A stretch of DNA of 64,000 nucleotides from Methanococcoides methylutens (GTDB lineage Archaea > Halobacteriota > Methanosarcinia > Methanosarcinales > Methanosarcinaceae). The stretch covers positions 248,001 through 312,000 of the forward strand of contig NZ_JRHO01000009.1 in the NCBI RefSeq assembly GCF_000765475.1, given 5' to 3'. Shown one piece after another: positions 36,456 to 64,000 of the stretch. The notes under the pieces are model-generated. The model saw only the letters and a list, made by a program, of their open reading frames with translations, had not been told where the DNA came from and did no database searches. Positions within the stretch are counted from its first letter, which is position 1. Each line of letters opens with the position of its first letter. The position numbers were made by a program, and so were the translations under genes.

Positions 36456-36456
36456 C

Positions 36457-37509: not shown

Positions 37510-37519
37510 GATGTTCACC

Positions 37520-38773
<1,254 letters not shown>

Positions 38774-48834: not shown

Positions 48835-49203
48835 TCATAATCCGTCTACAAATATGCCTATTCTGTCAATAGCTTCCTTAATATCTTCCCTTGATGCTGC
48901 ATAGGCACAGCGAAGGAATCCTGCTCCGGTATCGCCGAAGATATCTCCTGGAATTGTTACAACGTTCTGCTCTTGAAGCAGCCTTTCTGCAAATTCGTCA
49001 GATGTCAGCCCTGTGCTCTTGATGGATGGGAATGCATAGAATGCTCCTTTTGGGTTGAAGCAATCCAGTCCTATATCGTTCAATCCTCCAACGATGAGCT
49101 TCCTGCGCCTGTCGTACTCCCGGACCATTTTGCTAACTTCTTCCTCTCCGTTGCGAAGTGCTTCGATAGCACCAACCTGTGCTGTGATAAGGAATTTAAT
49201 GCT
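48835..49203 (-). pseudogene. Aminotransferase class I, C-terminal remnant cut by the integrated element
   Basis: The minus-strand frame is open from a TAA at 49204 to the TGA at 48835. The product ends like alanine/aspartate aminotransferases: ITAQVGAIEALRNGEEEVSKM, YDRRRKLIVGGLNDIG, NPKGAFYAFPSIK, FAERLLQEQNVVTIPGDIFGD and FLRCAYA with the conserved substrate-binding Arg. About three quarters of the usual 380-400 residues, including the PLP lysine, are missing. Homology stops at about 49190, where the sequence becomes AT-rich, and the integrase gene follows. The missing 5' part should lie at the other end of the element, outside the window. Confidence 0.85.
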
Positions 49204-49241
49204 TTATTTTGTCTATTAAAGGTAGTTAATGCTTTATTTTG
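49196..49241. repeat. Two 16-base direct repeats at the left element boundary (attL candidate)
   Basis: TTAATGCTTTATTTTG occurs at 49196-49211 and again at 49226-49241, 30 bases apart. They sit exactly between the cut aminotransferase gene and the integrase gene, where core and arm sites of a tyrosine recombinase are expected. They could be integrase arm-binding sites or the core plus a target duplicate; the other end of the element is needed to tell. Confidence 0.6.
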
Positions 49242-49278
49242 GGTTTTAATCGCCTTACAATATCTATGAGGTGAAATT

Positions 49279-50127: not shown

Positions 50128-50249
50128 TATTGTATGATGTTGATGTCATAAAAGAAGAATCGGCTGACAACACACTCAATCTTATATATTAGCATTTTAA
50201 TTTTGTATTCACAGTATTCAGCGCAAGCCTGTTTACAGGGAGAATCAGT

Positions 50250-50390
50250 ATGACCAAAGAAACTACAAGAATTAGTCTGACAATCAGAACCGATGTGCTC
50301 AAAAACATCGATGAAAGCAGAGGACTCATTTCAAGGAGTAGGTATATTACTGAATTCCTGAATGCAGGTTTTGAATACGAAATATTATAA
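50250..50390 (+). CDS. 46-residue ribbon-helix-helix protein
   Basis: A short gene with GGGAGA seven bases before the ATG and a TAA stop. The product MTKETTRISLTIRTDVLKN continues with DESRGLISRSRYITEFLNAGFEYEIL, a compact ribbon-helix-helix (CopG/MetJ-type) fold: a beta-strand, a helix, a turn and a second helix. Such proteins in archaeal plasmids and viruses control copy number or other element genes. It sits directly after the integrase and probably is the first regulatory gene of the element. Confidence 0.75.
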   Translation: MTKETTRISLTIRTDVLKNIDESRGLISRSRYITEFLNAGFEYEIL

Positions 50391-50504
50391 AACAGCGTTA
50401 CAAATAGCCGAAGGCATGTTCTTACACACGCCATCGACTTATATATTGGAAATTGAGCTTATCTCTGCAAAATTTCCCCATTCAGCAAATGGGATTTATG
50501 ATGA

Positions 50505-50663
50505 GACCTTATTAAAGCGTTTCCATATAATGTCCGGCTTTTTTGTGATGCTACAGGTGTAGTATATGATATCGAAAAATTTCGAAAAGAATTTAGTAAA
50601 GAACTTGAACCTTCTCTCAATATGGAGAAGAAGTCCGGTACATCAGAAGTGTGTCCTTGCTGA
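50505..50663 (+). pseudogene. Gene remnant lacking a start codon
   Basis: The frame that follows two in-line TGA codons at 50499-50504 encodes about 52 residues with a natural composition (DATGVVYDIEKFRKEFSKEL) and ends at TGA 50661-50663 after CPC. No ATG, GTG or TTG lies in the first 30 codons. It might be the tail of a gene shifted by an indel near 50500, or a gene starting at an unusual codon. I do not recognise it. Confidence 0.3.
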
Positions 50664-50695
50664 AGCTGCAATAGGAGACATAGCCTGAAATGAAA

Positions 50696-50735
50696 AGGAT
50701 GGCGAGAATCCCTTAAATCCTCACCAATAACATTC
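50696..50735. repeat. AGGATGGC motif, copy A
   Basis: AGGATGGCGAGA followed by CCTTAAATCCTCA and then ACATTC; AGGAT can pair with ATCCT. A longer version lies at 53796-53845 (AGGATGGCAAGA, CCTTGAAATCCTCA, ACATTC). The two may be diverged copies of a small structured RNA or regulatory element. Similarity is partial. Confidence 0.35.
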
Positions 50736-50861
50736 ATCTATACATTGTAGATGGAATATTGTTCGTAACCATTCGAACATAGTTCCTACTGTATATATTT
50801 CTGTTGGTTATGGTTTTTGGGAATTGCTTTCCGTTTCAGAATTTAATAAGGAGTAATTCCA

Positions 50862-50987
50862 ATGAATACTCATTATGAAAAATTTGGTATTGAGAATAAC
50901 CATTTCATGAATGTATTTTTCCACAAGATAGCACACAGTATTACATTTCCTTGTGCCATTTCAGTTGTAGCCCGTAGAACACCATAG
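50862..50987 (+). CDS. 41-residue protein ending in UAG; read-through would reach the helicase start
   Basis: A small gene with GGAGT eight bases before the ATG. The product is MNTHYEKFGIENNHFMNV continuing to VARRTP and the frame meets TAG at 50985-50987. If the amber codon is decoded as pyrrolysine, the frame continues 13 more codons (LTMHLGKGMEMIS) and stops at TGA 51027-51029, which overlaps the ATG of the helicase gene as ATGA. The exact coupling is notable. I do not recognise the family; it may be short and non-functional. Confidence 0.5.
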   Translation: MNTHYEKFGIENNHFMNVFFHKIAHSITFPCAISVVARRTP

Positions 50988-51025
50988 TTGACCATGCACC
51001 TTGGTAAAGGAATGGAGATGATTTC

Positions 51026-52903
51026 ATGATTTCAGAAACAGTTGATAAAAATTTTGTAGTACTGACACATGATGAAAATCCAACCTGTATAAATCATCTT
51101 TACGGTTGTCAACCTGGGACTGGGAAAACTGAAATGGTTGTAGATGAAATTGCATCAAACCCTGATAAAAAATATCTCTACCTTGGAGATAATCATCAAT
51201 TGATACAGGAAACATATAACCGCATCAATGAAAAAAACCCTGAAGTTGAATCTGATATCCTCGAAGGATTCAAAAGAAGTTGTGAAATTCTTCAAGATGA
51301 ACAGCATCCTGAATATAAGAGAGTTTTAAAATTGTATGATAATGAAGTCCCACCTGCAAATATTTGTATACGTGTGGATTGTTTTAATGAAGAATGCAAA
51401 TACAGGCGGCAATGGCAAGATATAAGAGGTGAAAACGGTGAAATCTGCAAAACGGTCTTAGCACCTATAAATTACACGAGAATTTTTAATTTCAATGATT
51501 TTGAAAAAGTGTTCATTGATGAAGGCATTAATTCAAATGGAAGACCCCGTTTTTCATATAAAAAAACAGAAGTTTTTGATGTATTGGACAGAAAATTAAA
51601 AAAACAAATTTCTGAAACAGTTTTTGGAAGGACTGTAAAAAACATAATATGTGAAGATGGTGAACAATTATTACATGATGCCGAAGAACTTGATGAAGCA
51701 ATCTTCAATTACAATAAAATGATGTGTGAATTGAATAAAAGCAAAAGTGACAGACAATTCATCAATTCACTAATCAAAATTAAATTTAGCCAAATTGGAA
51801 TGTTTTTTGCATTTAAGAAAGCCAAACTTGAAGAAAAGTATGAAGAAGAAATGTATTTAAAGCAAATGTTGGAAGGAAGCAAGCAAAATCATGAAAAAAG
51901 GAAAACACGACTGATTGATAATTGCACTAATGAAATGGCGTGTAATAATCGATTGGTTGAAGGTTCAAAATATGAACTTGAATTTGGATTAATTACAGTA
52001 GAAATGTTTGAAGAGCGCAAAAAGGAAGGAGAAATAAGAAATATTGCGCTTGAAACAAAGTTGAAAAATGATTTAGAAATAGTCAATAAACTTTCAGAAA
52101 AAGTCGATAAATCTATTAAAAATAGTAATAAAAAATTAGAAAATTTGGATATATCTTCACTTTCAATGTCATGGCATGAACTGATTATGTTCAAACAAAT
52201 GGGGTTTGACGGTGAAATCATATTCACTGATACAAAATTGCAATTCACCTGTGAATCATTCATCAAAGAAATTGAAAAATTCCAGAAAATGTTCCCACGA
52301 TATAAACACAAAACAATCTATCATTACACAGATGAGACAAACAAAAATAGTCTTATCATAATGAAAGAAAAGAAGAATGGGTATTACAAATCTTATATTA
52401 ATAAAGATGTGAAAAAAGCAATACAAAAAATAAATAAAATCAAATATAACAACAAACAACGTCATCCAGATAAAAAAATCTGTATATTAACCTACAAGCA
52501 CTTAATTACAGATGATGAACATGCAGACCCTAACAAAATGTACAAGTATCTTGGTCTCGATGCATTTTGGTGGCATGGTAGTGGTGGAGTTAACAAATTT
52601 GCACATTATGACATATTGATTGTACTTGGAACCCCAATGCCGCCTGAAGGATGGTATGAAGAACAATGGGAAGCTTTGTATGGTGATGAACCAATGCCTG
52701 AACTTGTTTTCGATGATAGTGGAACAAGTATGCTTCCAATTGATGAAAAATTGCGTGAAATGTTTGAATCACATTGGTTTGGAGCTATTTACAATTCAGT
52801 TCACAGGGTAAGACCATTGCAATATGACACACAAATTTATTGGTTTGGTAAGAACTTACCTAAACAGCTTGAAAGGGAGCTTTCAATTAAAATGGAATTT
52901 TGA
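51026..52903 (+). CDS. Superfamily 2 helicase-like P-loop protein of the element
   Basis: A 625-residue protein. Walker A GCQPGTGKT at 27-35, an Ia-like YLYLGDNHQLIQETY, Walker B KVFIDEG with DE at 165-166, and near the C-terminus LTYKH, YDILIVLGTPMPP and the motif VI-like VHRVRP with two arginines. Between Walker A and B are cysteines at about 86, 114, 119, 124 and 141 (CIRVDCFNEECKYRRQW), a place where XPD/DinG helicases hold an iron-sulfur cluster. A long coiled-coil region (about 230-370) follows. GGAGATG precedes the ATG. As the only helicase here it is a candidate replication protein, an inference. Confidence 0.7.
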   Translation: MISETVDKNFVVLTHDENPTCINHLYGCQPGTGKTEMVVDEIASNPDKKYLYLGDNHQLIQETYNRINEKNPEVESDILEGFKRSCEILQDEQHPEYKRVLKLYDNEVPPANICIRVDCFNEECKYRRQWQDIRGENGEICKTVLAPINYTRIFNFNDFEKVFIDEGINSNGRPRFSYKKTEVFDVLDRKLKKQISETVFGRTVKNIICEDGEQLLHDAEELDEAIFNYNKMMCELNKSKSDRQFINSLIKIKFSQIGMFFAFKKAKLEEKYEEEMYLKQMLEGSKQNHEKRKTRLIDNCTNEMACNNRLVEGSKYELEFGLITVEMFEERKKEGEIRNIALETKLKNDLEIVNKLSEKVDKSIKNSNKKLENLDISSLSMSWHELIMFKQMGFDGEIIFTDTKLQFTCESFIKEIEKFQKMFPRYKHKTIYHYTDETNKNSLIIMKEKKNGYYKSYINKDVKKAIQKINKIKYNNKQRHPDKKICILTYKHLITDDEHADPNKMYKYLGLDAFWWHGSGGVNKFAHYDILIVLGTPMPPEGWYEEQWEALYGDEPMPELVFDDSGTSMLPIDEKLREMFESHWFGAIYNSVHRVRPLQYDTQIYWFGKNLPKQLERELSIKMEF

Positions 52904-53030
52904 CACTTTTCTTTTTTTTGTAACAAAGGAATTATGAATGGTTCCTTTGTTCGGTAAACATGGTGTTAGATTTCCACTATCATTTATTTTTAGTTGAATT
53001 ATCAAGTTGATATCATAATTTTACTTATCT

Positions 53031-53092
53031 TCGCTATCAGTGGACGCATAAATAAAAAATTGCACATTTTTGAAATTGCAATCGCTATCAGT
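53031..53092. repeat. Direct repeats TCGCTATCAGT (iteron-like)
   Basis: Two exact 11-base copies at 53031-53041 and 53082-53092, 51 bases apart. The octamer CGCTATCA or its complement core AGCGATAG also occurs at 53815-53824. They lie just left of the long hairpin. Iterons at such spacing are typical of binding sites for initiator proteins, but only two exact copies are seen. Confidence 0.5.
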
Positions 53093-53163
53093 CAGAGTAT
53101 CGATGCAAATTTTCTTTTATTTTTCGTCATTTTTTTTAATTTTTTTAATTTTTCCACTATCGG

Positions 53164-53248
53164 GTACAACTGTGTAAAGGTGAGTAAAAGATACATAGGG
53201 TACAAAGGTATATTTTACTCACCTTTAGACAGTTTTACACAGTTGTAC
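53164..53248. repeat. Long imperfect hairpin next to the helicase gene
   Basis: The left arm GTACAACTGTGTAAA plus GGTGAGTAAAA (53164-53189) pairs with TTTTACTCACC (53213-53223) and TTTACACAGTTGTAC (53234-53248): 26 paired bases with a ten-base bulge on the right arm and a 23-base loop. Complementarity of 15 plus 11 perfect bases is far beyond chance in a short stretch. It could be a replication structure, a transcription terminator or a small RNA. Confidence 0.85.
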
Positions 53249-53250
53249 TA

Positions 53251-53322
53251 GATGCGTTTTTTTTGAAGGAAATATAGCGATTTTGGACAAAAAAATGAAA
53301 TGGCAAAATTAAAAAACGCATC
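53251..53322. repeat. 12-base inverted repeat flanking an AT-rich segment
   Basis: GATGCGTTTTTT at 53251-53262 pairs exactly with AAAAAACGCATC at 53311-53322, spaced by 48 bases. It starts three bases after the long hairpin, so the two together form a compact palindromic block, as expected for an origin or a recombination site. Confidence 0.75.
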
Positions 53323-53795
53323 GGGTAAAGGTGCTATTTTCACATATAATATATTATATTTTGGAATAGCTGGTGTTCATATTAGGTTGGATTTCTAAAC
53401 AATATTAAAAAAGTCTGTATGTAAATAGAAGCCACATAACAGCTTTCATAGCATGAAACATACCATACACCCTATTGCTCATAAAAGTTTAATTTCAATT
53501 GAATATGAGCTTTTGAAAGCCATTCCTTATCAGCGACTGAGCCTTGGATACAACACCATTTTCACATATTACAAACAAGAGTGAAATTGACAATTTCTTT
53601 ATAGTAAATATGTGTGAATTTGTCAAATGCGGCGTTAAATGTGGGAAATGAGTGCCATTTTCTATTAGATTTGGTAAAATCTTCCTTCATGTAACAATAA
53701 CAATCAATCTTATATATTCAAAAACTATGCTATTTCTGTTGAGATATCCTGACTGGGAATGAATATTTCCATATCATGGGATATTTCCCTTCTGT

Positions 53796-53845
53796 AGGAT
53801 GGCAAGAGCAACTAATAGCGATAGCCTTGAAATCCTCAGACATTC
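53796..53845. repeat. AGGATGGC motif, copy B
   Basis: The longer version of the motif at 50696. It has an insertion between the GGCAAGA and CCTTGAAATCC blocks and lies about 65 bases upstream of the 156-residue protein gene at 53912. Preceded by a GGGAA/TTCCC stem (53756-53790). Confidence 0.35.
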
Positions 53846-53911
53846 GTACTTCTTGCATGAAGTTGTTAAAATTAAAAATTAAAGAATTGAAAATTTGGAA
53901 AATTGATTATA

Positions 53912-54382
53912 ATGACGATAAATTATGATGAAGCTTTACACAAGCATTGGGATGAAAAAAACAAAATGATAGTTGAACAGATACAATTGCACAAAGCTAA
54001 AATGGATGCGCTAAGATATGACTTGGTAAAGGGTGTTTATAACTACCATTATTACGACAAGATAACTCATGATACTTTCTGGGAGGATTTTCATGAACAA
54101 TCTCTGTTACCACCCCATCTTTTCATAATGGAAAAGCTGGAGAAAATATTCCCCAAACCATATACTATCGATGAATGCGATGATATATTTGAAGGTCAGC
54201 TGACCATATCGGATATAAAGGACTTGTTGCGTGCAGTAGATTTGAGGGAGATGCTTGCGGGAAAAATTAGCGATATGGTGAATCCACCCATACCTTTACA
54301 GGATTTTATCGATGATTCTACGTATTCATACTATCTACGCAGGAAAACTCATTTTAGCGAATATAGAAAAGAGATGGCATGA
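53912..54382 (+). CDS. Element protein of unknown function, 156 residues
   Basis: A protein I do not recognise. It is rich in aromatic and charged residues in its first half (HKHWDEKNKMIVEQIQLHK, NYHYYDKITHDTFWEDFHEQ) and shows a conserved-looking PPHLFIMEKLEKIFPKPYTIDECDDIF. It has no signal peptide or membrane segment. ATG 53912 is chosen; a TTG three codons earlier is in frame. It follows the origin-like region and precedes a convergent AbrB-type gene. Confidence 0.6.
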   Translation: MTINYDEALHKHWDEKNKMIVEQIQLHKAKMDALRYDLVKGVYNYHYYDKITHDTFWEDFHEQSLLPPHLFIMEKLEKIFPKPYTIDECDDIFEGQLTISDIKDLLRAVDLREMLAGKISDMVNPPIPLQDFIDDSTYSYYLRRKTHFSEYRKEMA

Positions 54383-54476
54383 AATGTGATATGACATATT
54401 CATCCTGAACAGATGAGTCTATGGATGCAGGAAGGTTAAGGTTGTACTATCATCACCTTCCTTTCAACTTCATCTT

Positions 54477-54638
54477 TCAATCCTTGACCTCTTCCAGGTA
54501 TATAGTCCCCATGTTTTCTTTAAATTCCAGCTTCGTTCCCTTTTTCCATCCCTTCAAGGACATTATCATTGACGGAATCGTAATCGTATTCCTTCCTGTT
54601 GCCTTATCTTCCTGAATAGTATAACTCTTCTTTTTCAT
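54477..54638 (-). CDS. AbrB/SpoVT-type DNA-binding protein (antitoxin-like), 53 residues
   Basis: A small gene with GAGTGAT upstream of the ATG. The product MKKKSYTIQEDKATGRNT continues ITIPSMIMSLKGWKKGTKLEF and ends YLEEVKD, a classic swapped-hairpin AbrB fold with the GRNTITIP strand, the GWKKGTKL turn and the final strand. Such proteins are transcription regulators or antitoxins. No toxin gene is beside it, so it may act alone or pair with a distant partner. Direct repeats TTATAGTACT lie just upstream at 54667-54676 and 54691-54700. Confidence 0.8.
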   Translation of the reverse strand: MKKKSYTIQEDKATGRNTITIPSMIMSLKGWKKGTKLEFKENMGTIYLEEVKD

Positions 54639-54983
54639 AAAATCACTCACATTAACATAGTTCTAATTATAGTACTATATTTAGGGTTATTTATAGTACT
54701 GCCCTTTATATGCTAAAGCCACAAAAACAACTGTCAAAATAAAAGTCTTTTTTAAACAGTAAAATGGTAGAATTCTTTGAACTACACAGAAATCTTTGAT
54801 TTTTTATAATGTATGTTTGACCTTAATTATGGAAATGGCAGTTTGTTCGCACCATTTCTATTTTATTATTATAGATAATAAAACGGTGCTATGTTCCTTT
54901 TTTACAAAATGTTGCCAAACACCAGAAAATATATTATTACTATTAATAATATTTATATGCAGTTACTATTATAGTGGTAACTG
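54639..54983. other. Intergenic region with divergent promoters and operator-like repeats
   Basis: It holds the promoter of the AbrB-like gene (ATATAGTACTATAATTAG region, 54663-54681) with the decamer TTATAGTACT twice, at 54667-54676 and 54691-54700, a likely operator. On the right, TTTATATG (about 54950-54957) lies 27 bases before the ATG of the winged-helix gene and AGTTAC at 54961-54966 pairs with GTAACT at 54977-54982, an operator-like palindrome against the start. Confidence 0.55.
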
Positions 54984-56321
54984 ATGGTTCAAAATGAAAT
55001 TATTGAGGATTTTGCGTTGGCTATGAAAGACCATATAGTTGACAATTGCGAACTTGTTGAACCTGTGGTAACTAAAACAGGTAAAAAGCAGTCAGAGCAA
55101 ACGATAAAACGTCGATTTGATTGTTCCTTGAAATATGCAATTCTTAATACCGTGCTTGAAAATAATGGTTTAAAACTTCCAGAGTTATATAAACGCTCAA
55201 AATGGGATAATTATCCTTCCTTCAAAAAAGGTCTTAGTAATCTTTGTACGAAAGGCTACATTGATAAAAGCGGAACTCGAATGAATTACCGTTATTACAT
55301 AACGGAAACTGGGAAATTTCATGCTGAAAAGCCTACATTTGAATTAGATACTTATTTTGCTAAGTTGAAAAGTCGTGTTGATAAAATAACATTTGATTCC
55401 CTTAAACGCATTGTTCAGGATATGGATGATGATGCAATGGTTCGGTTTGCACAATCCGTTGTTGGTGGCATTGACATTGAATCCTATCTTGGTGAAGCTA
55501 TGCGGGATGAATATAATAACATTAAATCTCAAAATGCTTCATTGCAGAGTAGCAATTCTTCGTTGCAAAGTACTGTTTCTTCATTGCGGAATGAAGTTGG
55601 TGGGATTAAATCGAATGTTTTTGATTTGGATAAACATGTGGCTGATGGTCGTTCCATAACTTGTCATGAGGCTGATGAGAATGAGCTGTATGGAAAGAAA
55701 TATGATAATATGGATGATTATGTCAGTGACATTGAAAACTCCTTAGAATCAGCTTATATGAAGATTTCTGAATTAAAAGATGGCATTATTTCTGATGAAG
55801 AAAAGCAGGATATTATTGATGAAAAAAAACGGAAACTTGTTATTGTTCCTGGTAGTAATAAAAAACCTGCTGGAGGAAACAAGGCAAAATCTGTTGGGAA
55901 ATCTAAGATTCCTACAGACGAATCCCTTAATAGAACGCTTTTGATTAAAGATAATTTGGGTGAACGGTGCAGTTATTTGTGTTATAAGAAATTAAAATAT
56001 TATTTTCCATATACTACTGAAAAACAAACAATTGTTGATAGATTAACACTAAATAAGGGCGATATTGCCGTTATGGCGGTGTCATCTGCTACTGCCGTCA
56101 ATAAGCATTTGAAGGCTCTTAAACGCCTTACTAAATCTCAAATAGATAATGGATATGAAAGTTATATTTTGTTAGATGGTCGAGAACGTGAATATGTAAT
56201 AAGATTTAATGTTCATGGTAATGATTTTGAAACTATAACATTGCAATCTCAAAAGGAATATGCTGATAATATTGAACATTTGATAGAAACGGGGAGAATA
56301 CAACCGGATGCATGGCGTTAA
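54984..56321 (+). CDS. Winged-helix, coiled-coil protein of the element
   Basis: A 445-residue protein. An N-terminal winged-helix-like domain (about 45-120: KYAILNTVLENNGLKLPELYKRSKWDNYPSFKKGLSNLCTKGYI, in parts) is followed by a Ser/Gln-rich coiled coil (about 170-210: QNASLQSSNSSLQSTVSSLRNEV), a low-complexity lysine- and glycine-rich linker near 290-315 and an unrecognised C-terminal domain. Such proteins in archaeal elements may act in regulation or partition. A TATA element 27 bases upstream and the lack of a Shine-Dalgarno suggest a leaderless mRNA. Confidence 0.6.
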   Translation: MVQNEIIEDFALAMKDHIVDNCELVEPVVTKTGKKQSEQTIKRRFDCSLKYAILNTVLENNGLKLPELYKRSKWDNYPSFKKGLSNLCTKGYIDKSGTRMNYRYYITETGKFHAEKPTFELDTYFAKLKSRVDKITFDSLKRIVQDMDDDAMVRFAQSVVGGIDIESYLGEAMRDEYNNIKSQNASLQSSNSSLQSTVSSLRNEVGGIKSNVFDLDKHVADGRSITCHEADENELYGKKYDNMDDYVSDIENSLESAYMKISELKDGIISDEEKQDIIDEKKRKLVIVPGSNKKPAGGNKAKSVGKSKIPTDESLNRTLLIKDNLGERCSYLCYKKLKYYFPYTTEKQTIVDRLTLNKGDIAVMAVSSATAVNKHLKALKRLTKSQIDNGYESYILLDGREREYVIRFNVHGNDFETITLQSQKEYADNIEHLIETGRIQPDAWR

Positions 56322-56700
56322 AAACAGTGATGATACTCCATTGGCTATGTATGTGGCAATGTTGGGATGGGAACTATTGAGATTTATTAATATGTATGAA
56401 CATATTTAAAATCGAGAAGTGCCAAAATCCCATTCTTTGCACAAATATCAATATCTCACCTACTTCAAATAATTTTTATATTTTATTTAAAATTAATAGG
56501 AATGTATTACTTGCAATAGAGATATAAATAACGCATCAACACAATCCACATTACTTTGAAGTTTTTAAAAAAAAATATATAGTATTGATTAATATGTACA
56601 AGCTGTATTATACATGTGTGGGATTTCTGCATCATTGAGTAGGCACCTTAAAATTGCTTATGCAATGAAAGAGAAACAGTAAATGTAATTGAGTGATTTA
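56322..56700. other. Intergenic region of 379 bases
   Basis: AT-rich, no supported gene. GTGCCAAAATCCCA at about 56419-56432 and GTGTGGGATTTCTGCA at about 56616-56631 resemble the core GTGGGATTTTGCAC of the 53-base repeated promoter element found at 58120 and 63073, and may be diverged copies. Promoter signals for the lipoprotein gene should lie near 56660. Confidence 0.35.
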
Positions 56701-57177
56701 ATGAACACGAAAATATTTATTATAGCAATACTTCTTGTCACGATTTTATTTGCGGGTTGCACTGGGAATTCAAATTCAAATTCAAATGTGGATAGATTTT
56801 GTATTGAATGTGATGGTTCTGGTTTGGACCCTTTCCCTACAGAAATATTCTCTTTCAATCATGAGATGGACGTAGAGGAAACTGATGATGGATATATAAT
56901 AATTGTGACAAATCTAGACCCTGTTGGGGGAATGTTTGAAGTGGATTTTGAAGTAGGGTATGATGAAGTAGTGTCTGAATATGGGGATACAACATGGTAT
57001 GAAACCAAATCGTTGTTCGAAGGTCAACAGGTATCATACATAGGTCCTGGCGACACACATACTTTCAAATTTAAGGCGAACAATTGGAATTGGCAAGAAA
57101 CAACTGCTTATAGTTGCGGTCTAAGAAAAACAGTACAAGAAAAATGCTGGGCATGTCGTGGTACTGGGCTTCGTTAA
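56701..57177 (+). CDS. Lipoprotein with two DnaJ-type CxxCxGxG motifs
   Basis: A 158-residue protein. The N-terminal signal FIIAILLVTILFAGC is a lipobox, so the mature protein should be anchored by the Cys outside the membrane. A CIECDGSG motif follows an Asn/Ser-rich linker, and CWACRGTG lies at the very C-terminus, with another Cys in YSCGL; the DnaJ-like motifs may form one zinc site joining the ends. The middle is an acidic beta-rich domain (GMFEVDFEVGYDEV, YIGPGDTHTFKFKANN). GAGTGA precedes the ATG. Function unknown. Confidence 0.7.
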   Translation: MNTKIFIIAILLVTILFAGCTGNSNSNSNVDRFCIECDGSGLDPFPTEIFSFNHEMDVEETDDGYIIIVTNLDPVGGMFEVDFEVGYDEVVSEYGDTTWYETKSLFEGQQVSYIGPGDTHTFKFKANNWNWQETTAYSCGLRKTVQEKCWACRGTGLR

Positions 57178-57594
57178 AAAGGTGGCTCTGTAGAAAACCT
57201 TATCCAAACAAAATATATATCCTTGACATACTGTTCAAGGTTATATATTCTATTTTTTCGAATATTATTCTCACTTATTATGAAATTTTAGTTCTCCTTC
57301 GGAAATGGTGTGTGTGGTTTCGTTATCTTATGGGATAATATAAAAATGTGTGTCAATTCTAATAATAGGTATCAATGGAACGATTTCTTAATTTAATGAA
57401 GGTGTAAATGCTTTTGCATCGGAAGTAAAAACTATATTTCACATGAATCTACCAAATGCAATAATATGTTTATTTGCAACACTTCATTTTACAGAGGAAA
57501 TGAAGTCTAAATGCATTGCAGTAAACGTAAAAAATAAGATTATAGCCACATACCATTTCCTCTGTAAAATGAATGGTACTTTATGAATATTTCA
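57178..57594. other. Gene-poor region with inverted-repeat elements
   Basis: No supported gene. It starts with GGCTCTGTAGAAAACCT (57184-57200), a copy of the terminal sequence of the small insertion at 59676-59808. CCTTGA/TCAAGG form a short hairpin at 57221-57240. The right third is the first 91-base inverted-repeat element (57483-57573). Confidence 0.4.
57483..57573. repeat. 91-base palindromic element, copy 1
   Basis: Two perfect 20-base inverted arms (CATTTTACAGAGGAAATG core at the left, CATTTCCTCTGTAAAATG at the right) enclose a 51-base AT-rich centre. A diverged copy lies at 58289-58379 with the same length and conserved blocks inside (AAGTCTAAA, AAACGT, ATTATA, CACAT). It could be a tiny MITE-type element or a structured RNA; a coding reading (HFTEEMKSK) exists in both copies but is short. 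Confidence 0.7.
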
Positions 57595-57822
57595 TCATTC
57601 CAATCCATATAGTTCAGCAAAATCATCCATATCACCGATATGAATGAAATTTCCTTTTCTAATCTCATTGAGTCTTTCTAAAAATTCCTTTTTTGCTGGT
57701 TTTTCAATCATACTTTCCATGAATAATTGTATTTGTTCATCCATATTTATTTTGTGAGATTCACAGAAGGTAGAAAACTATTCATATATGGCTTCATCCA
57801 CATCAAATGTCTTCAGTACCAT
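57595..57822 (-). CDS. Antitoxin-like protein with in-frame UAG at codon 15 (candidate pyrrolysine)
   Basis: The minus-strand frame from ATG 57822 to TGA 57595 encodes 75 residues with one interruption, a TAG at 57778-57780. Before it is MVLKTFDVDEAIYE; after it FSTFCESHKINMDEQIQLF, then EKPAKKEFLERLNEIRKGN and DMDDFAELYGLE. This matches small antitoxin-like proteins that begin VKTFxVDExxYxxFS, so homology runs across the TAG. GGAGTGA precedes the ATG, while the later internal ATG (57747) has no ribosome-binding site. A host with pylT/pylS can read UAG as pyrrolysine. A disabling mutation is the alternative. Confidence 0.65.
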
Positions 57823-57910
57823 TATGTTCACTCCAATTAATTTACATTCTTAACATTAGGAATTGTATAATATACGGTCACAATCAAACCTTTGCCAAGC
57901 AATCAAAAAG

Positions 57911-58087
57911 CTACTTGTGTTCCTCATAAATCTCTTTGATTGATTTTTGAAGTTTCTCTTTATGCTCTTTCCTGTTTTCCTTGATGTACCTGACCTTACC
58001 ACCACCATATAGCACTGGTGTGAAAATGTATTCATCATCATCTTCAGGTTCATCTACCATAACACGTTCTTCAATATCTTCTGGCAT
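57911..58087 (-). CDS. 58-residue acidic protein, probably leaderless, ending in UAG
   Basis: The frame from ATG 58087 to TAG 57911 encodes MPEDIEERVMVDEPEDDDEY, FTPVLYGGGKVRYIKENRK and a lysine-rich helix ending EIYEEHK. CATATATC near 58112-58119 lies about 28 bases upstream, so the mRNA is probably leaderless, and the 53-base repeated element ends right above that TATA box. Read-through of the UAG would add eight residues only. I do not recognise the family. Confidence 0.6.
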   Translation of the reverse strand: MPEDIEERVMVDEPEDDDEYIFTPVLYGGGKVRYIKENRKEHKEKLQKSIKEIYEEHK

Positions 58088-58119
58088 TATAATGAAGCAT
58101 TAATTTTTGTTGATATATG

Positions 58120-58172
58120 CCTTGTGGGATTTTGCACTTTTATGAAAACGACCCCTTCACGAAAGTGCAAAA
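58120..58172. promoter_or_regulatory. 53-base repeated promoter element, copy 1
   Basis: A 53-base sequence identical to 63073-63125. It contains the 11-base inverted repeat TTTTGCACTTT/AAAGTGCAAAA around CCCCTTCACG. On the minus strand it sits just upstream of the TATA box of the 58-residue gene. This placement before two different minus-strand genes suggests a shared operator or a mobile regulatory element. Confidence 0.75.
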
Positions 58173-58197
58173 TGGATTAGAAAAATGGAGTGTTGTT

Positions 58198-58238
58198 GTT
58201 TTGCACTTTTATGACATATACCCCTTCGCGAAAGTGCA
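58198..58238. repeat. Diverged copy of the TTTTGCACTTT hairpin
   Basis: Resembles the centre of the 53-base element: TTTTGCACTTTTATGA, then ACCCCTTCGCGAAAGTGCA. The inverted arms are kept while the loop is altered, which fits selection for the hairpin or operator. A partial third unit (CTTTGTGAAAGTGCAGAA) follows at about 58250-58268. Confidence 0.6.
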
Positions 58239-58288
58239 GATTGTAGACCACCTTTGTGAAAGTGCAGAATGGACAATTCTGGTAACGC

Positions 58289-58379
58289 TTCATTTTACAG
58301 AGGAAATGAAGTCTAAAACAATAGCATTAAACGTGAAAAATGAAATTATATGCACATATCATTTCCTCTGTAATAAAAA
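58289..58379. repeat. 91-base palindromic element, copy 2
   Basis: Same length as copy 1 (57483-57573), with a perfect left arm and a right arm intact for 14 bases (CATTTCCTCTGTAA) before it degenerates. The centre is about three-quarters identical to copy 1. Confidence 0.65.
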
Positions 58380-58500
58380 GTAGAATTTATGGTATTGGCA
58401 AGAAAGAAAGGAAGTATTTGAAATATTAATGGGGTTGAAAAAATGAATTTGAAAGGATTTTTGTGATAATCTTATATATCATTCATTTCCCATAGTCCGT

Positions 58501-59052
58501 TCAAAAATACCCATCAAGTGAAGGAGTCGGAGGTAGCTCTTCACGCCAATATTCAACTGGATAACCTGATGAGCCTTGACACTTTACATACATGTTTAAA
58601 CATAACGTAGTAGGTGTCAACGTAATAGAAAAAGAACCATCATAATCAAGATTAGCCATAGAAGTATCATTCACACTAGTAAATGTTACTAACCCAAGCG
58701 ATTCCAAATGGCGTATTATACGGTCTGTTTCTTGCACATGCACATCTTCAAATCCAGAAATTGTTTGTAAAATATTCATATCAATGTCAATACTATACGC
58801 GTAAATCAAACTGTCCTTTTCCCAACCTTTCTTTGTGTGATTAAATAGATAATTAACTAAGGCAACCTCAGAAGAGGTCAATTTCGACAATAAATCGATG
58901 TATATCAGATTGCTCTCATCCTTTCCATCTGGTGTACAACTCGAAGCTAAAAGACCTGCCCACATTTTTTGAACGTCTTTATCATCAATAAATGAACCTT
59001 CTTCCAGAATCTTATATACAAGATGTGGTGGTGCTGATAAACCGTCTATAGC
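58501..59052 (-). pseudogene. DUF4393 (Abi-alpha-like) protein, N-terminally truncated
   Basis: The open frame after a TGA at 59053-59055 encodes AIDGLSAPPHLVYKILEEG, then DVQKMWAGLLASSCTPDGK, NLIYIDLLSKLTSSEVALVNYL and a C-terminal domain ending PTPSLDGYF. This matches the C-terminal two thirds of DUF4393 proteins, related to abortive-infection factors. The usual N-terminal 100 or so residues are missing and no start codon lies before the Met of MWAGLL (58965). It may be a remnant or may start at that internal ATG. Confidence 0.6.
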
Positions 59053-59182
59053 TCAAGGACATTTCGTACAGTGGACACAGTCAGAGGCAATATCTACACT
59101 TATCTGGCGGCAAGAATTCTGTCCTTGCAAATAGCAGCTGCTGATTAGTTTGCAAATATTTAATGTGAAAATTGAGTTATCG

Positions 59183-59632
59183 TTACGGAAAATGACGTTT
59201 GTACGTTTCCCTAAACAAATACCAAACGGAATCAACATTCCTTTCAGATTTCGCTTTATTTTTGATTTCCTTGTCATGTTCAAATTTATCATACACCCAT
59301 AACCAAGCTTGTTTATATGTGGAATGGCTGGCAGGGTGATGATTAAACTTCAACAAATCGTTGATGTCTGGCAATTTTGTATCTGATAAAAACGCAGTAA
59401 GCCACTCGAACTTATGCTCTTCATATATCTCCATCCGTTCTGCTTCCCAACGTTTCCTTGCTTTTCCCTGATGGTATGCCGATGTACCAGGGGGATACAT
59501 CCGAATACCATTGTTTTCTATCCGATACAGTGCTCCTCGCTGCAATGCCCCATCGGGAACGTATCCAACTGGATAGGCTCCAAGTATATCGGGCAACATT
59601 TCATCTTTTTTTTCTTCGCTCATTAGATTCAT
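59183..59632 (-). CDS. 149-residue element protein, unknown
   Basis: A protein I do not recognise: IENNGIRMYPPGTSAYHQGKARKRWEAER, then LTAFLSDTKLPDINDLLKFNHHPASHSTYKQAWLWVYDKF. It is charged and aromatic, without membrane segments. GGATAAATATG on the minus strand about 27 bases before the ATG suggests a leaderless transcript. It lies between the truncated DUF4393 gene and a small insertion. It could be a DNA-binding or defence protein, but nothing shows it. Confidence 0.55.
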   Translation of the reverse strand: MNLMSEEKKDEMLPDILGAYPVGYVPDGALQRGALYRIENNGIRMYPPGTSAYHQGKARKRWEAERMEIYEEHKFEWLTAFLSDTKLPDINDLLKFNHHPASHSTYKQAWLWVYDKFEHDKEIKNKAKSERNVDSVWYLFRETYKRHFP

Positions 59633-59675
59633 CTACTTTTATTCATAATTTCATATTTATCCTTTTTGATATCTT

Positions 59676-59807
59676 GGCTCTGTAGAAATCCTCAATATCC
59701 AAGCACAAATTAAGAAATATAATAATTCAAGAAGTACTTTCCGTTACTGAATATATTTGTCATTTTCAACCTATAGATAGCGATTTTAATAGGTTTTCTA
59801 CAGACCC
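59676..59807. mobile_element. Small insertion with terminal inverted repeats (MITE-like)
   Basis: GGCTCTGTAGAAATCCT at 59676-59692 and AGGTTTTCTACAGACCC at 59791-59807 are inverted repeats (about 15 of 17 matching). A third copy, GGCTCTGTAGAAAACCT, lies at 57184-57200. ATCT occurs one base outside each end, a possible target duplicate. It contains no transposase gene. It has cut the gene to its right, whose homology stops at its end. Confidence 0.55.
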
Positions 59808-59957
59808 CATCTTTTTTTCTCTTGAATCAAAAGAAAGACGCATTCCAACTGCATCACCAAGAATGTCAATGTTATCGGCAAGCCATGGTGTAAATTTTGA
59901 TGCTTCATTTTCCCACATATCTCTGAGTGGTACTGTTTCAATTTTGCCAATTTTCAT
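59766..59957 (-). pseudogene. DUF4268-type nuclease, truncated by the small insertion
   Basis: The 63-residue frame starts MKIGKIETVPLRDMW, KFTPWLADNIDILGDAVGMRLSF, the usual N-terminus of stand-alone DUF4268-type predicted endonucleases. It then runs into the inverted-repeat element (GSVENLLKSLSIG) instead of the usual nuclease core. AAGGAAATGAT precedes the ATG and the gene follows ORF108 in the operon, so it was probably the last operon gene before being cut. It is likely non-functional. Confidence 0.55.
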
Positions 59958-59985
59958 ATCATTTCCTTCTTTTAAATCTCAGTAG

Positions 59986-60312
59986 TTATTGGATAATAAA
60001 TTCGATAGTCCCTCTCTTGCTTCCTTTGGCAGCATATTCTTCATCAACCAATATGGCACCAACATATGATGCGATTGCAGTTTTTGTGACATTTTCTTGC
60101 AACCATTTACCGACACTGCCTTTAGGGGCTTTGTCTCTTGAAGTTCCAATGTTTACAGATTTGCCTTTAAAATGATGAAGCAATTGAGAAAATTGCTCAG
60201 AAGATACTTTAATGATTCCAGGTTTCTTACCATAGTAAATGGTAGTCCCATCCGCAACTGAACCTTCATATTTAAAATTGCTTATTCCACCCCAAGTTTT
60301 TAATGATTTCAT
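59986..60312 (-). CDS. 108-residue protein of the RNase III-like operon, unknown
   Basis: A protein with MKSLKTWGGISNFKYEGSV, YYGKKPGIIKVSSEQFSQLLHHFKGK, TSRDKAPKGSVGKWLQENVTKTAIASYVGAILVDEEY and a final GTIEFIIQ. I recall similar hypothetical proteins in bacteria, but I cannot name the family. GAGGATG precedes the ATG. It is the third gene of a four-gene minus-strand operon and may belong to a nuclease-type system. Confidence 0.6.
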   Translation of the reverse strand: MKSLKTWGGISNFKYEGSVADGTTIYYGKKPGIIKVSSEQFSQLLHHFKGKSVNIGTSRDKAPKGSVGKWLQENVTKTAIASYVGAILVDEEYAAKGSKRGTIEFIIQ

Positions 60313-60330
60313 GTCATCCTCACTGTAAAA

Positions 60331-60747
60331 TTAAAAATCACACTCAAATTCGCCAATAACCTTTCCTTCCTTGCGAATGGAACTACGAGTAACCATCATT
60401 GTAGTACGTGAAGCTCTTTCATTGGCTCTTGATGGTTTCATATGTTCCTTGTACCAATTGAAAGAAACTCTATAGATTGTGTAGTGATGAAGATTTTGCG
60501 ATGATTTGTTTTTATCCTCAAATGTTGCAATGATTGCTTGAACGGTCTCAAGTACGTTAATGGTAACTCCGATGGAAGATGTATTTTTATGAGCAGATTT
60601 CAGAATGACCCTTTCTCCATCATATATTGCTTCATTACTTCCGGTTCCCGTCTCTAACAACTGTGTACCCAAACGTTTTGCAACATGTTCCCCCATACGA
60701 TGTCCAAAATTATTCCCTGCTTGACCAGTTTCAGGCGTTTGTCCCAT
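60331..60747 (-). CDS. 138-residue protein of the RNase III-like operon, possible nuclease
   Basis: It begins MGQTPETGQAGNNFGHRMGEH and contains RLGTQLLETGTGSNEAIYDG, ERVILKSAHKNTSSIGVT and IYRVSFNWYKEHMKP, ending EGKVIGEFECDF. The GERVILKSA strand is reminiscent of restriction-endonuclease folds, but I see no clear D-(D/E)xK triad, so this is only a suggestion. GAGGTGG lies six bases before the ATG and ten bases after the RNase III-like gene, so they are one operon. Confidence 0.5.
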   Translation of the reverse strand: MGQTPETGQAGNNFGHRMGEHVAKRLGTQLLETGTGSNEAIYDGERVILKSAHKNTSSIGVTINVLETVQAIIATFEDKNKSSQNLHHYTIYRVSFNWYKEHMKPSRANERASRTTMMVTRSSIRKEGKVIGEFECDF

Positions 60748-60756
60748 GATGCCACC

Positions 60757-61212
60757 TCATTCCTTTAAAACGTACATTTTTGCCAGACGCTTTGCTTCAC
60801 CAAGACCCCTTGTAAGATAAACAGCACCGAATAGGGCTTCAAATGCTTCAGCATTAGGTGTTATGTCATCCACTTCAAATGTTTGATTCTGAATGTCCAT
60901 ATATTCGAGAACTTTTAATTCTATGGCAATTGGTGCAAAGTTCTCATCCTGTTCAATGCCAAGTTTTGTTTCTGTGCCTTTTGCCTTATCAGAGAGCTGA
61001 CCTTTTGCCCAATCAGGATGTTGTTCATAGAGATGTTCACGGATTATCAAACGAAGGACAGAATCACCTATAAATGCAAGTCTCTGATTGTGATTTACTA
61101 ATGAACCGTTGCTGCTGTGAGTAAGTGCAAGCTTGTATGTTTCCAATTCTTTATCTGTGAATTCGGAATCATCACCCAAGAATTTGTGCATAAATTTGAT
61201 AATTTGTTCCAT
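60757..61212 (-). CDS. RNase III-fold protein with altered catalytic residues
   Basis: A 151-residue protein with only an RNase III domain and no double-stranded-RNA-binding domain. The signature helix reads NQRLAFIGDSVLRLIIREHL; the second motif is EAFEALFGAVYLTRG. Compared with bacterial RNase III (NxRLEFLGD and D-x-x-E), the first Glu is Ala (residue 46), Asp50 and Glu125 are kept and the second Asp is Glu122. That is a changed metal site. ATG 61212 is chosen; the frame is open 23 codons further up. It heads a four-gene operon. RNase III is uncommon in archaea. Confidence 0.7.
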   Translation of the reverse strand: MEQIIKFMHKFLGDDSEFTDKELETYKLALTHSSNGSLVNHNQRLAFIGDSVLRLIIREHLYEQHPDWAKGQLSDKAKGTETKLGIEQDENFAPIAIELKVLEYMDIQNQTFEVDDITPNAEAFEALFGAVYLTRGLGEAKRLAKMYVLKE

Positions 61213-61328
61213 GAAATCGCTCTCTTTAAATTTGAAAATATTTTCAGAAATAATATATACAATAATAATATTATAACCCATCAGTAATTTAATTTACATA
61301 TAACTAAAATTGGTGTGTGTAGTTAAAA

Positions 61329-61949
61329 ATGAAGATATGCAACAAATGTGAAATAAAATATCCAGATACGAATTTGTTTTGTAACAAATGTCATAGTTTA
61401 CTTCAGCTTCAGAAGGTTGTTACAGACTCAAAATCAAAAAAACAAATTGATGTTGGCACCATCCTTTCTGAAAAAAAGAAAACAAAACTCGATAAACCAA
61501 TATCAAAGGATATTGGCATCTCTGAAATTCCTATTTATGATGATTGGGAACCACCAGCTGCAACTACAGTTTATAGCAAAATGAAAAACATTCCTTATGG
61601 TGTTTTAAAATATAATTTAAGTAAAGGTTTATACACAATTGGGATTGGACAAATTAGGTCTTACCTCGATGACCGTACCTATAGTTGTAAAAGTTGTTCT
61701 TATTATACTAGTTTTGATTATGAATTGTGTTCATTGAAGGAAGCAAAGGTCAAATCTAATGCTATTTGTAAATCATTTGAAGTATCACCAGAGTTTCAAG
61801 TATCCTTAGATTCTACTAATAAAAAAGAGAAAGATAATGAAAATGTAAAAGAAAAGAAGAAGAAGAGGAAAACATTCTATTGTTGTATATGCAATAAGGC
61901 ATTTCATACTGAAGAAGGGAGAAAACGTCATCTAAATGCTAAACACTAA
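61329..61949 (+). CDS. Zinc-ribbon and C2H2 zinc-finger protein
   Basis: A 206-residue protein. An N-terminal zinc ribbon CNKCEIKYPDTNLFCNKC, a middle cysteine cluster CKSCSYYTSFDYELC with a later C, and a C-terminal C2H2 finger YCCICNKAFHTEEGRKRHLNAKH are seen; basic linkers separate them (KEKKKKRKTF). C2H2 fingers of this kind are common in archaeal viruses and plasmids, where they bind DNA. It is divergent from the RNase III-like gene; the 115 bases between carry AT-rich promoter sequences. Confidence 0.75.
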   Translation: MKICNKCEIKYPDTNLFCNKCHSLLQLQKVVTDSKSKKQIDVGTILSEKKKTKLDKPISKDIGISEIPIYDDWEPPAATTVYSKMKNIPYGVLKYNLSKGLYTIGIGQIRSYLDDRTYSCKSCSYYTSFDYELCSLKEAKVKSNAICKSFEVSPEFQVSLDSTNKKEKDNENVKEKKKKRKTFYCCICNKAFHTEEGRKRHLNAKH

Positions 61950-61988
61950 ATATTCACATTTTCTACTTTAGTGTAAATGAAAGATTAA

Positions 61989-63023
61989 TCATTGCTTTCT
62001 TTTTTTTACCAGCATTTCCCCTATGAAGTTGCCAAATTTCAATGAAGAATACATTACAATTGAAACAAGGAATAAAACAACAATAACTGCACTATCAATA
62101 TTCCACTTGTCCACTTCAATTTCTATGGAACTTACGTCTTCATTTGGAACAAATGTGGTGCTGTTCTTATAGAATCCATCCTTCACAGTAACAACATAAC
62201 TACATTCGTCGTAGGAACCTAAATTCAGCTCCAATGTCCCCTGCTCATCAGTTTTATACTTAATATTATTACCAATTACAGGTTTTTTTGTATCATTATA
62301 CAGCAGTTCAACTTCAATGTCAGCATTACTTGATGGAATACCATCTCTTTTTGCATTAACAATTATTTTGCTGGTGTTTTTTACATATGAAGGTGTGCAG
62401 TCAGTGAAGGTTCCATCATCGTTCTTAATAGCGACATGTCCTACCAGATATCCTCTATTCTCGGTAAATTCATACTTGCTGCTTTTTGGTGGATACAGAT
62501 TAAAACCAACATCAGCAATCATCCAACTGTCATTTTCTAACTGAACTTCGGAGAAACGATGATTGTTTCTTCTCATTGATACTGGATTTAACATGTCTTC
62601 GGTTACAATTTGCCTGTATGGTACACTTGTTATATTCGCCATATATTCAAAAACAAGGGCAAGTTCTCCACAATTGGCTCTATTAATATACAGATAATAG
62701 CCAGGTAGGGGAATGTAATCTCGCAGGTAATAGCGGTAATTGTTTGAATTAAAATGATTAGCAGCAGGGAAATTAAATTGTTCTTGTTCCCACTGAATTA
62801 TCATCTCAGCTTTTTCAGAATTGTTAGCTGACTGGTTGATAATAATCACAGATTCATCCATCATTTGAGATTCAATCTTATCATTTTCAGTAACAGAATA
62901 CGCGAAAAGTGGATGGGACACAATCAATGCAAAAAGAACTATTGATGCTAGATATTTCCAATTTGGATATTCTGATATTTTTTGTGTTGACATTAATTTC
63001 CATCTGAAGTATGGCTTTAACAT
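61989..63023 (-). CDS. Transglutaminase-like membrane protein
   Basis: About 344 residues. An N-terminal hydrophobic segment (ASIVLFALIVSHPLFAYS) is followed by an extracellular domain with the transglutaminase triad: Cys in RANCGELALVFEYMANIT, His in NNHRFSEVQLENDSW and Asp in MIADVGFNLYPP. A beta-rich domain and a C-terminal membrane helix (VIVVLFLVSIVMYSSL) end the protein. Several in-frame starts exist: ATG 63023 or ATG 62993, with a TTG at 63062. The 53-base repeat lies just upstream. Function unknown; it might modify or cleave surface proteins. Confidence 0.65.
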   Translation of the reverse strand: MLKPYFRWKLMSTQKISEYPNWKYLASIVLFALIVSHPLFAYSVTENDKIESQMMDESVIIINQSANNSEKAEMIIQWEQEQFNFPAANHFNSNNYRYYLRDYIPLPGYYLYINRANCGELALVFEYMANITSVPYRQIVTEDMLNPVSMRRNNHRFSEVQLENDSWMIADVGFNLYPPKSSKYEFTENRGYLVGHVAIKNDDGTFTDCTPSYVKNTSKIIVNAKRDGIPSSNADIEVELLYNDTKKPVIGNNIKYKTDEQGTLELNLGSYDECSYVVTVKDGFYKNSTTFVPNEDVSSIEIEVDKWNIDSAVIVVLFLVSIVMYSSLKFGNFIGEMLVKKRKQ

Positions 63024-63072
63024 ATAAAATACATTTGATATTATTTGTATTTTGAATTCCAAGTATAATGTT

Positions 63073-63125
63073 CCTTGTGGGATTTTGCACTTTTATGAAA
63101 ACGACCCCTTCACGAAAGTGCAAAA
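63073..63125. promoter_or_regulatory. 53-base repeated promoter element, copy 2
   Basis: Identical over 53 bases to 58120-58172. It lies upstream of the transglutaminase-like gene on the minus strand, with a TATA-like CATTATAC just after it (63064-63071), as at copy 1. The shared arrangement repeat, TATA box, gene suggests coordinated control. Confidence 0.75.
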
Positions 63126-63250
63126 GAAACATTCATAAGCTTAAAAAATGAAAATCAGTTCTCATTCATTTCCAGTACACAAATATGAAATATCTGATGG
63201 GATGGGGAATACTTCGAACAATGGTTTTGAAATAATGAAGAATGAAATTA

Positions 63251-64000
63251 TCACTCTTCATAATCGGGTGTTGGTTTGCTCATTTTTCCAATTTCTTCCA
63301 AGCAAACTTCAAGAGCATGTTTTTCTTTCTTATTTAAAAGGATATAATTTGAAGATTCTTTTATCAGTATTATCCTTTCTTTTATATTATCCAGCCCTGT
63401 AATTTCTTTCAATGCATCAACATTAATCTTATCGGTAACTTCCGATAAATAATTTGTAATAGTATGGCTATAGCTCTTTGTCATCATGCTTGCTATTAGC
63501 TTTGGCAATGCAACGTCATTTGAAACTATGTTTTGCATGAACTCTTCATGTGGATAATCACTATTCCATTGTTTCCACAGGATAAGAATAGTATATATGT
63601 GAGTGGATTCTATTAAAGTTCCATTTTCTGCCCATCTTCGAATTTTATCACAAGCTAACTTTTCCAACCTTTGAAGTTGTTCTAAATTTATCAGTTGTTG
63701 TTCTTCAGGAATATCAGGTTCTTTATAGTCATACTTGCCATGTTTTTCGTTTTGTAAATCAATTTCCCATACAAATGTGTATAGACTATTATGTGTATTA
63801 TTGATGCTCCTTTCTAAAATATTAAATCGTTCTTCTTGAGTTTCAATTTGCTCAAGTAGTGAAGAAATAATCCAATGAATCTTCAACGAAGTCCCATAAA
63901 ATATAGATTCATCTTCAGGGAATGAATCGCCAACTTCCATAATTGCATTAACTAAGCTTTCAATGTTATCAGCAGGTATTTTGTCAGTGTAATCGGGGAA
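63251..64000 (-). CDS. KAP-type P-loop NTPase, C-terminal part
   Basis: The frame is open across the window end and ends at 63251, leaving 249 residues. The segment FYGTSLKIHWIISSLLEQI, LERSINNTHNSLYTFVWEIDLQNEKHG and LEKLACDKIRRWAENGTLIES resembles the C-terminal helical part of KAP-family NTPases, some of which are in bacterial defence islands. The Walker motifs would lie beyond the window. The assignment rests on recall of family sequences and needs confirmation. Confidence 0.6.
   Translation of the reverse strand, partial: FPDYTDKIPADNIESLVNAIMEVGDSFPEDESIFYGTSLKIHWIISSLLEQIETQEERFNILERSINNTHNSLYTFVWEIDLQNEKHGKYDYKEPDIPEEQQLINLEQLQRLEKLACDKIRRWAENGTLIESTHIYTILILWKQWNSDYPHEEFMQNIVSNDVALPKLIASMMTKSYSHTITNYLSEVTDKINVDALKEITGLDNIKERIILIKESSNYILLNKKEKHALEVCLEEIGKMSKPTPDYEE

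What the first reader, a model, noticed from the sequence alone, without database searches (positions are those of the whole stretch)
57595..57822. In-frame UAG in an antitoxin-like gene of an element in a pyrrolysine-using host
The minus-strand frame 57822-57595 has a strong ribosome-binding site (GGAGTGA), a protein-like sequence on both sides of a TAG at codon 15, and a proper TGA end. The sequence before and after together looks like one small antitoxin-type protein. The same window encodes pylT, pylS and pylBCD. If UAG is decoded, this is a pyrrolysine-containing protein outside the methylamine methyltransferases, and in a mobile element whose expression would depend on the host's pyrrolysine supply. 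Decoding is inferred; the frame and the TAG are seen directly.
Basis: partly seen in the sequence, partly recalled or inferred. Interest (0 to 1): 0.78.

Follow-up and report, generated by a model that had tools for sequence, protein, structure and literature searches.

The report
Orphan RelB-type antitoxin read through TAG
A small antitoxin gene on a 20-kb integrated element carries a TAG codon where its relatives have lysine, glutamate, arginine or glutamine; because the host almost never uses TAG as a stop, the codon is most likely read as pyrrolysine, an apparently neutral case of a known phenomenon in a gene that has lost its toxin partner.

Summary
In detail: frame 57822-57595 (-) has a GGAGTGA ribosome-binding site, a TAG at codon 15 (57780-57778) and a TGA end. 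It encodes a RelB/DinJ-type antitoxin. Twelve distinct homologues (eight in Methanolobus-group genomes; bins labelled Altiarchaeales, Micrarchaeota, ainarchaeum and Tenericutes) align across the TAG and have K, E, R or Q there, never TAG. No PylS was found in the four non-Methanosarcinaceae bins. In this genome TAG is almost never a terminator: in 264 kb only 4 of 219 long ORFs end in TAG; three of those lie mid-domain and the fourth is pylB. Methanolobus uses TAG for about 12% of stops (p=9e-5). A chromosomal racemase shows the same pattern (TAG here; K/E/R in genus mates). Reading as pyrrolysine is therefore the best explanation, but as an ordinary consequence of the host's code. Special regulation is unsupported: the cognate YafQ/RelE toxin is absent from the genome, the operator palindrome is broken, and 7 of 25 otherwise invariant residues have changed. 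The gene is an orphan and may be decaying. Pyrrolysine outside methyltransferases, gained neutrally, is already known (Thg1). The element is real: 20.5 kb, absent from two relatives, bounded by 351-bp repeats.

The parts
57595..57822 (-). relB/dinJ-type antitoxin gene, 75 codons read through the TAG, TGA stop
   Evidence: RelB/DinJ profile hits of homologues; DinJ among the best solved chains (E 0.019, weak)
57778..57780 (-). in-frame TAG, codon 15; K/E/R/Q in 12 homologues
   Evidence: codons AAA, AAG, GAA, GAG, CGG, CGT, CAG at this column
57828..57834 (-). ribosome-binding site GGAGTGA
   Evidence: sequence; L006 has GGAGTGA at the same spacing, most other Methanolobus copies have xxAGTGA
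57835..57872 (-). remnant of the operator region: the AATGTTAAATAA-N2-TTATTTAACATT palindrome of homologues lacks its 11 central bases here
   Evidence: alignment
57478..57585 (.). 108-bp repeat copy 1 with inverted ends, 9 bp past the antitoxin stop, where homologues have the toxin gene
   Evidence: (two copies in the genome)
58284..58391 (.). 108-bp repeat copy 2 (81% identical)
49279..50127 (+). tyrosine recombinase (integrase) of the element
   Evidence: Phage_integrase 7e-19
48835..49185 (.). left 351-bp direct repeat (att-like), a copy of the 3' end of an aminotransferase gene; right copy lies beyond the window at 69693-70043
49186..64000 (.). integrated element, continues to about 69692 (5.7 kb past the window end)
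   Evidence: absent from G020 and G024, which are collinear on both sides
38871..38942 (-). pylT, tRNA-Pyl with anticodon CUA
37520..38761 (-). pylS (one-piece PylRS)
   Evidence: sequence; 65% identical C-terminal part in Methanolobus G057
36457..37590 (-). pylB; its terminator is TAG, followed by 42 open codons overlapping pylC

Best explanation
The frame is an orphan RelB/DinJ-type antitoxin gene on a 20.5-kb site-specifically integrated element. A single base change at codon 15, for example AAG or GAG to TAG at a site that tolerates K, E, R and Q, created a TAG that the host reads as pyrrolysine with tRNA-Pyl and PylS encoded 19 kb away, because this genus has largely given up TAG as a stop codon. 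The product would be a 75-residue antitoxin with pyrrolysine in its predicted first helix, tolerated rather than selected. Shown: homology across the TAG; sense codons in relatives; near absence of TAG terminators in the sampled genome; pyl genes; element boundaries; absence of the toxin. Inferred: decoding as pyrrolysine, neutrality, and residual function.
For: Full-length homology across the TAG in 12 homologues with K/E/R/Q at that column. pN/pS about 0.2-0.4 against most homologues both before and after the TAG, indels in multiples of three. TAG ends 4 of 219 ORFs of at least 100 aa in 264 kb; two are inside histidine-kinase ATPase domains, one inside a racemase, one is pylB. Of ORFs of at least 150 aa only pylB truly ends in TAG (1 of 183), against 9/76 in Methanolobus, 4/54 and 9/74 in two other genomes (Fisher p 9e-5 against Methanolobus alone). 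In same-genus G020, two of three TAG-ended ORFs look like MtmB copies (motif recognised from memory). The racemase TAG aligns with GAG, GAA, AAA, AAG or AGG in eight genus mates, the same kind of substitution. Element ORFs of at least 100 aa end in TAA/TGA in 16 of 16 cases.
Against: No peptide or ribosome-profiling evidence. No second genome with TAG in this gene, so the TAG could be recent or have inactivated the gene. The toxin is missing, the operator is disrupted, and 7 of 25 residues invariant in the other 12 homologues have changed, so the gene may be decaying. pN/pS averages the whole branch and cannot date the TAG. Only about 10% of the genome was sampled for stop usage, with a simple ORF caller.
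Confidence: 0.72

Rival explanations
1. A relic: the toxin was lost, the antitoxin is under no selection, and the TAG is one step of decay. It may still be read as pyrrolysine, but the product does nothing. (Overlaps with the best explanation on decoding; differs on function.)
For: No RelE/YafQ toxin in the genome (with positives in G057 and G052; with positives in 4 control genomes); a repeat sits where the toxin should be; broken operator; charge-changing replacements K21E, K29E, S28D at otherwise invariant sites; clear relics of the family exist in G105 and G111.
Against: 75 codons without TAA/TGA, in-frame indels, 18 of 25 invariant residues kept, intact ribosome-binding site and start; L003/L023 and L028 also lack an adjacent toxin yet keep an open antitoxin gene.
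Confidence: 0.35
2. UAG terminates and the real product starts at the internal ATG (57744), giving a 49-residue toxin-binding fragment.
For: An ATG exists at codon 27 and the downstream part contains the region that binds toxin in RelB/DinJ proteins (family knowledge).
Against: No ribosome-binding site before it; every homologue used starts at or just before the first codon; it would cut the ribbon-helix-helix region; TAG terminators are nearly absent here.
Confidence: 0.05
3. Sequencing or assembly error at the TAG.
For: One assembly only; reads not available.
Against: The assembly is 99.87% complete in 15 contigs; the same K/E-to-TAG pattern occurs elsewhere in it.
Confidence: 0.04
4. The TAG is a selected sensor: full antitoxin is made only when pyrrolysine is plentiful, so the element's addiction or control state follows pyrrolysine supply.
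For: The codon lies early, so readthrough would decide whether any antitoxin is made (sequence).
Against: No cognate toxin, no TAG in any full-length homologue including Methanolobus pyl users, no RNA structure after the TAG (z=0.49), TAG generally sense in the host.
Confidence: 0.05

Closest known systems
Thg1 (tRNA-His guanylyltransferase) of Methanosarcina acetivorans with pyrrolysine (Heinemann et al. 2009, cited in PMC2933860)
   Same: A non-methyltransferase gene that gained one in-frame TAG in one organism while relatives have sense codons; translation as pyrrolysine reported there, not essential for activity.
   Different: Thg1 is a chromosomal enzyme whose TAG is reported to be translatable; this is an orphan antitoxin on an integrated element without protein evidence.
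Archaea reported to read all TAG codons as pyrrolysine (Kivenson et al., Science 2025; from memory, paper not held)
   Different: Only one gene is at issue here; whether this strain was analysed there could not be checked.
RelB/DinJ antitoxin with YafQ/RelE toxin (DinJ-YafQ type II toxin-antitoxin)
   Same: Antitoxin size and predicted helices, profile hits of homologues, toxin gene a few bases downstream in most homologues.
   Different: The window copy has no toxin, a broken operator and a TAG.
TAG-containing transposases of Methanosarcina (PMC2933860, PMC3639795)
   Same: Mobile-element genes with in-frame TAG in pyl-using archaea.
   Different: Those have a TAG conserved through the family; here the TAG is found once.

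Membership tests
RelB/DinJ antitoxin family | Profile match to RelB/DinJ | tested here: inconclusive
   Window protein itself: only DUF2683 20.4 bits, below cut-off 27. Its 55%-identical homologue in L024: TIGR02384 4e-5, below cut-off. RelB Pfam matched by 8 of 13 members, best 1.2e-4.
RelB/DinJ antitoxin family | Ribbon-helix-helix N-terminal fold | tested here: inconclusive
   AlphaFold2 gave helices 10-22 and 27-38 as expected but low confidence (pLDDT 61) and no strand for the single chain; best though non-significant fold hit is DinJ-YafQ.
Type II toxin-antitoxin module | Adjacent cognate toxin gene | tested here: not met
   No toxin beside the window gene or anywhere in the genome; present a few bp downstream in most homologues.
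Type II toxin-antitoxin module | Autoregulatory palindrome upstream | tested here: not met
   Palindrome in most homologues, central 11 bp missing in the window copy.
Pyrrolysine protein gained by neutral change (Thg1 kind) | In-frame TAG with sense codons in relatives at that column | tested here: met
Pyrrolysine protein gained by neutral change (Thg1 kind) | Host has pylT, pylS, pylB, pylC, pylD | tested here: met
   pylT by ARAGORN; pylSBCD order recognised from ORFs, pylS and pylB with homologues in the family
Pyrrolysine protein gained by neutral change (Thg1 kind) | Full-length product with pyrrolysine detected | not testable with these tools
   No proteome data
Organism reading TAG generally as sense | TAG nearly absent as gene terminator | tested here: met
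   1 of 183 against 9 of 76 in Methanolobus; sample of about 10% of the genome
Integrative element | Integrase, flanking direct repeats, empty site in relatives | tested here: met

The most novel reading that the evidence does not exclude
A mobile element carries a working antitoxin (for example one that protects against YafQ/RelE toxins of other elements) that can be made only in cells reading TAG as pyrrolysine, so the element is adapted to, and partly locked into, hosts with that code.
Probability: 0.18. Interest if true: 0.6.

Novelty: new member of a known kind. Interest (0 to 1): 0.36.

Why it matters
It shows that a host's altered use of TAG reaches genes of integrated elements, and that gene callers will truncate or miss such genes. 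If the protein works, it makes testable whether a changed code restricts which hosts a mobile element can use. It is not a new category of pyrrolysine use.

Tried and rejected
Pyrrolysine-specific RNA element after the TAG: none. Programmed sensor: rejected for want of toxin and of TAG in relatives. Internal start at codon 27: rejected (no ribosome-binding site; homologues start upstream). Homologues in viral contigs and plasmids: none. Relatives of the integrase in viral contigs: none. Structure prediction gave low confidence, so the fold search is only suggestive. The key 2025 paper on all-TAG pyrrolysine decoding was not in the library, so that comparison rests on memory. The genus name is inferred; no named record of the window's genome was seen.

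Full report
Observation. The minus-strand frame 57822-57595 exists as described: GGAGTGA (57834-57828), ATG, 14 codons before the TAG (57780-57778), 60 codons after it, TGA. The internal ATG is at 57744 (codon 27), not 57747, and has no ribosome-binding site.

One protein across the TAG. Searching the family of the host gave eight full-length homologues in one genus, identified as Methanolobus through named records of the same contigs (Methanolobus bombayensis, M. halotolerans and others). Four more come from bins labelled Altiarchaeales, Micrarchaeota, ainarchaeum and Tenericutes (the last label may be a binning error). All align from the first residue through the TAG column with 46-63% identity. 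The column holds AAA, AAG, GAA, GAG, CGG, CGT or CAG, never TAG. The four non-Methanosarcinaceae bins show no PylS; the one weak 25% match is probably another class II synthetase. pN/pS against most homologues is 0.2-0.4 on both sides of the TAG; dS is mostly saturated, so this shows past constraint, not constraint since the TAG arose.

What the gene is. The homologues match RelB/DinJ models weakly but repeatedly, and DinJ is among the best profile hits to solved structures (E 0.019). In most homologues a YafQ/RelE-type toxin gene begins a few bases downstream. The window copy has none: a 108-bp repeat with inverted ends starts 9 bp after its stop, and no such toxin was found elsewhere in the genome (with positive controls). 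Most homologues carry a palindrome AATGTTAAATAA-N2-TTATTTAACATT upstream, probably the operator; its centre is missing here. Seven of 25 residues invariant in the other homologues are changed. It is therefore an orphan antitoxin, repurposed or decaying.

The host's use of TAG. In 264 kb of the genome (window plus sampled stretches) 219 ORFs of at least 100 aa end in TGA 120, TAA 95, TAG 4. Three of the four TAGs interrupt recognisable domains (two histidine-kinase ATPase domains, one racemase; domains recognised by eye from their motifs); the fourth is pylB. With the same procedure Methanolobus, a genome of genus g13 (probably Methanosarcina) and a genome of another family use TAG for 12, 7 and 12% of stops; the difference is significant (p 9e-5 against Methanolobus). 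The racemase TAG aligns with E, K or R codons in eight genus mates, GAG in the closest. So TAG here behaves as a sense codon replacing charged residues in ordinary genes, and the antitoxin TAG fits that pattern. From memory, Kivenson et al. (Science 2025) described archaea, Methanococcoides among them, that read all TAG as pyrrolysine; the paper could not be opened. Size, G+C and relatives suggest Methanococcoides for this genome (inference).

The element. Two relatives are collinear with the window on both sides but lack everything between 49186 and about 69692. The ends are 351-bp direct repeats, 98% identical, being the 3' end of an aminotransferase gene, and an integrase lies next to the left end. 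The element's 16 ORFs of at least 100 aa all end in TAA or TGA.

Mechanism. Most likely UAG is decoded as pyrrolysine by the host's tRNA-Pyl and PylS, giving a 75-residue antitoxin with pyrrolysine in the first predicted helix (low confidence). Nothing suggests a dedicated signal or a regulatory role. Decoding, neutrality and residual function are inferred.

Comparison and novelty. Thg1 of M. acetivorans is the direct precedent for a non-methyltransferase pyrrolysine protein gained by neutral change (PMC2933860), and TAG-bearing transposases are precedent for mobile genes. This is a new member of a known kind.

A side lead may be more interesting. pylB ends in TAG in all 11 genomes of the genus, followed by exactly 42 open codons overlapping the start of pylC (TAG-G-ATG or TAG-G-GTG) and ending at the same TGA. 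Given the pylC protein, such an open stretch has a chance of about 2-26% per genome, and the genomes are related, so the open frame alone is weak evidence. TAG as the pylB terminator in several species is known (PMC2933860). In a genus that otherwise avoids TAG stops it could give pyrrolysine-dependent feedback: termination and restart at pylC when pyrrolysine is scarce, readthrough when it is plentiful. This is a hypothesis.

Noticed in passing
window 36328-37590 (-): pylB ends in TAG in all 11 genomes of the genus, followed by 42 open codons overlapping the pylC start and ending at the same TGA; in other genera of the family the match often carries one TAG but usually with further stops, except a second genus (g9) where it also looks open. 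Possible pyrrolysine feedback on pylC.
   Followed up: partly
G000 C2:91620-92348 (L045:1620-2351): Aspartate/glutamate-racemase-like gene with TAG at codon 108 where eight genus mates have E, K or R codons.
   Followed up: yes
G000 C2:76282-78915 and C2:93054-94388 (L044/L045): Two histidine kinases with a TAG at the same place inside the ATPase domain, after the motif PENGC(I/V).
   Followed up: partly
window 60757-61281 (-): RNase III-like protein (Ribonucleas_3_3, 1e-18) encoded on the element.
   Followed up: no
window 58501-58965 (-): Abi_alpha (abortive infection) domain protein; matches only part of the profile, possibly truncated at its N-terminus.
   Followed up: no
63251-65422 (-), crosses the window end: Large P-loop NTPase of the element, resembling KAP-type NTPases by eye; no family search was run.
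   Followed up: no
window 58115-58241 and 63068-63125: Repeats of TTTTGCACTTTTATGAAAACGACCCCTTCACGAAAGTGCAAAA within the element: two tandem copies and one distant copy, possibly replication or regulatory sites.
   Followed up: no
L021 1157-1165: In the Altiarchaeales-labelled homologue the antitoxin ends in TAG directly followed in frame by the toxin; readthrough would fuse the two.
   Followed up: no
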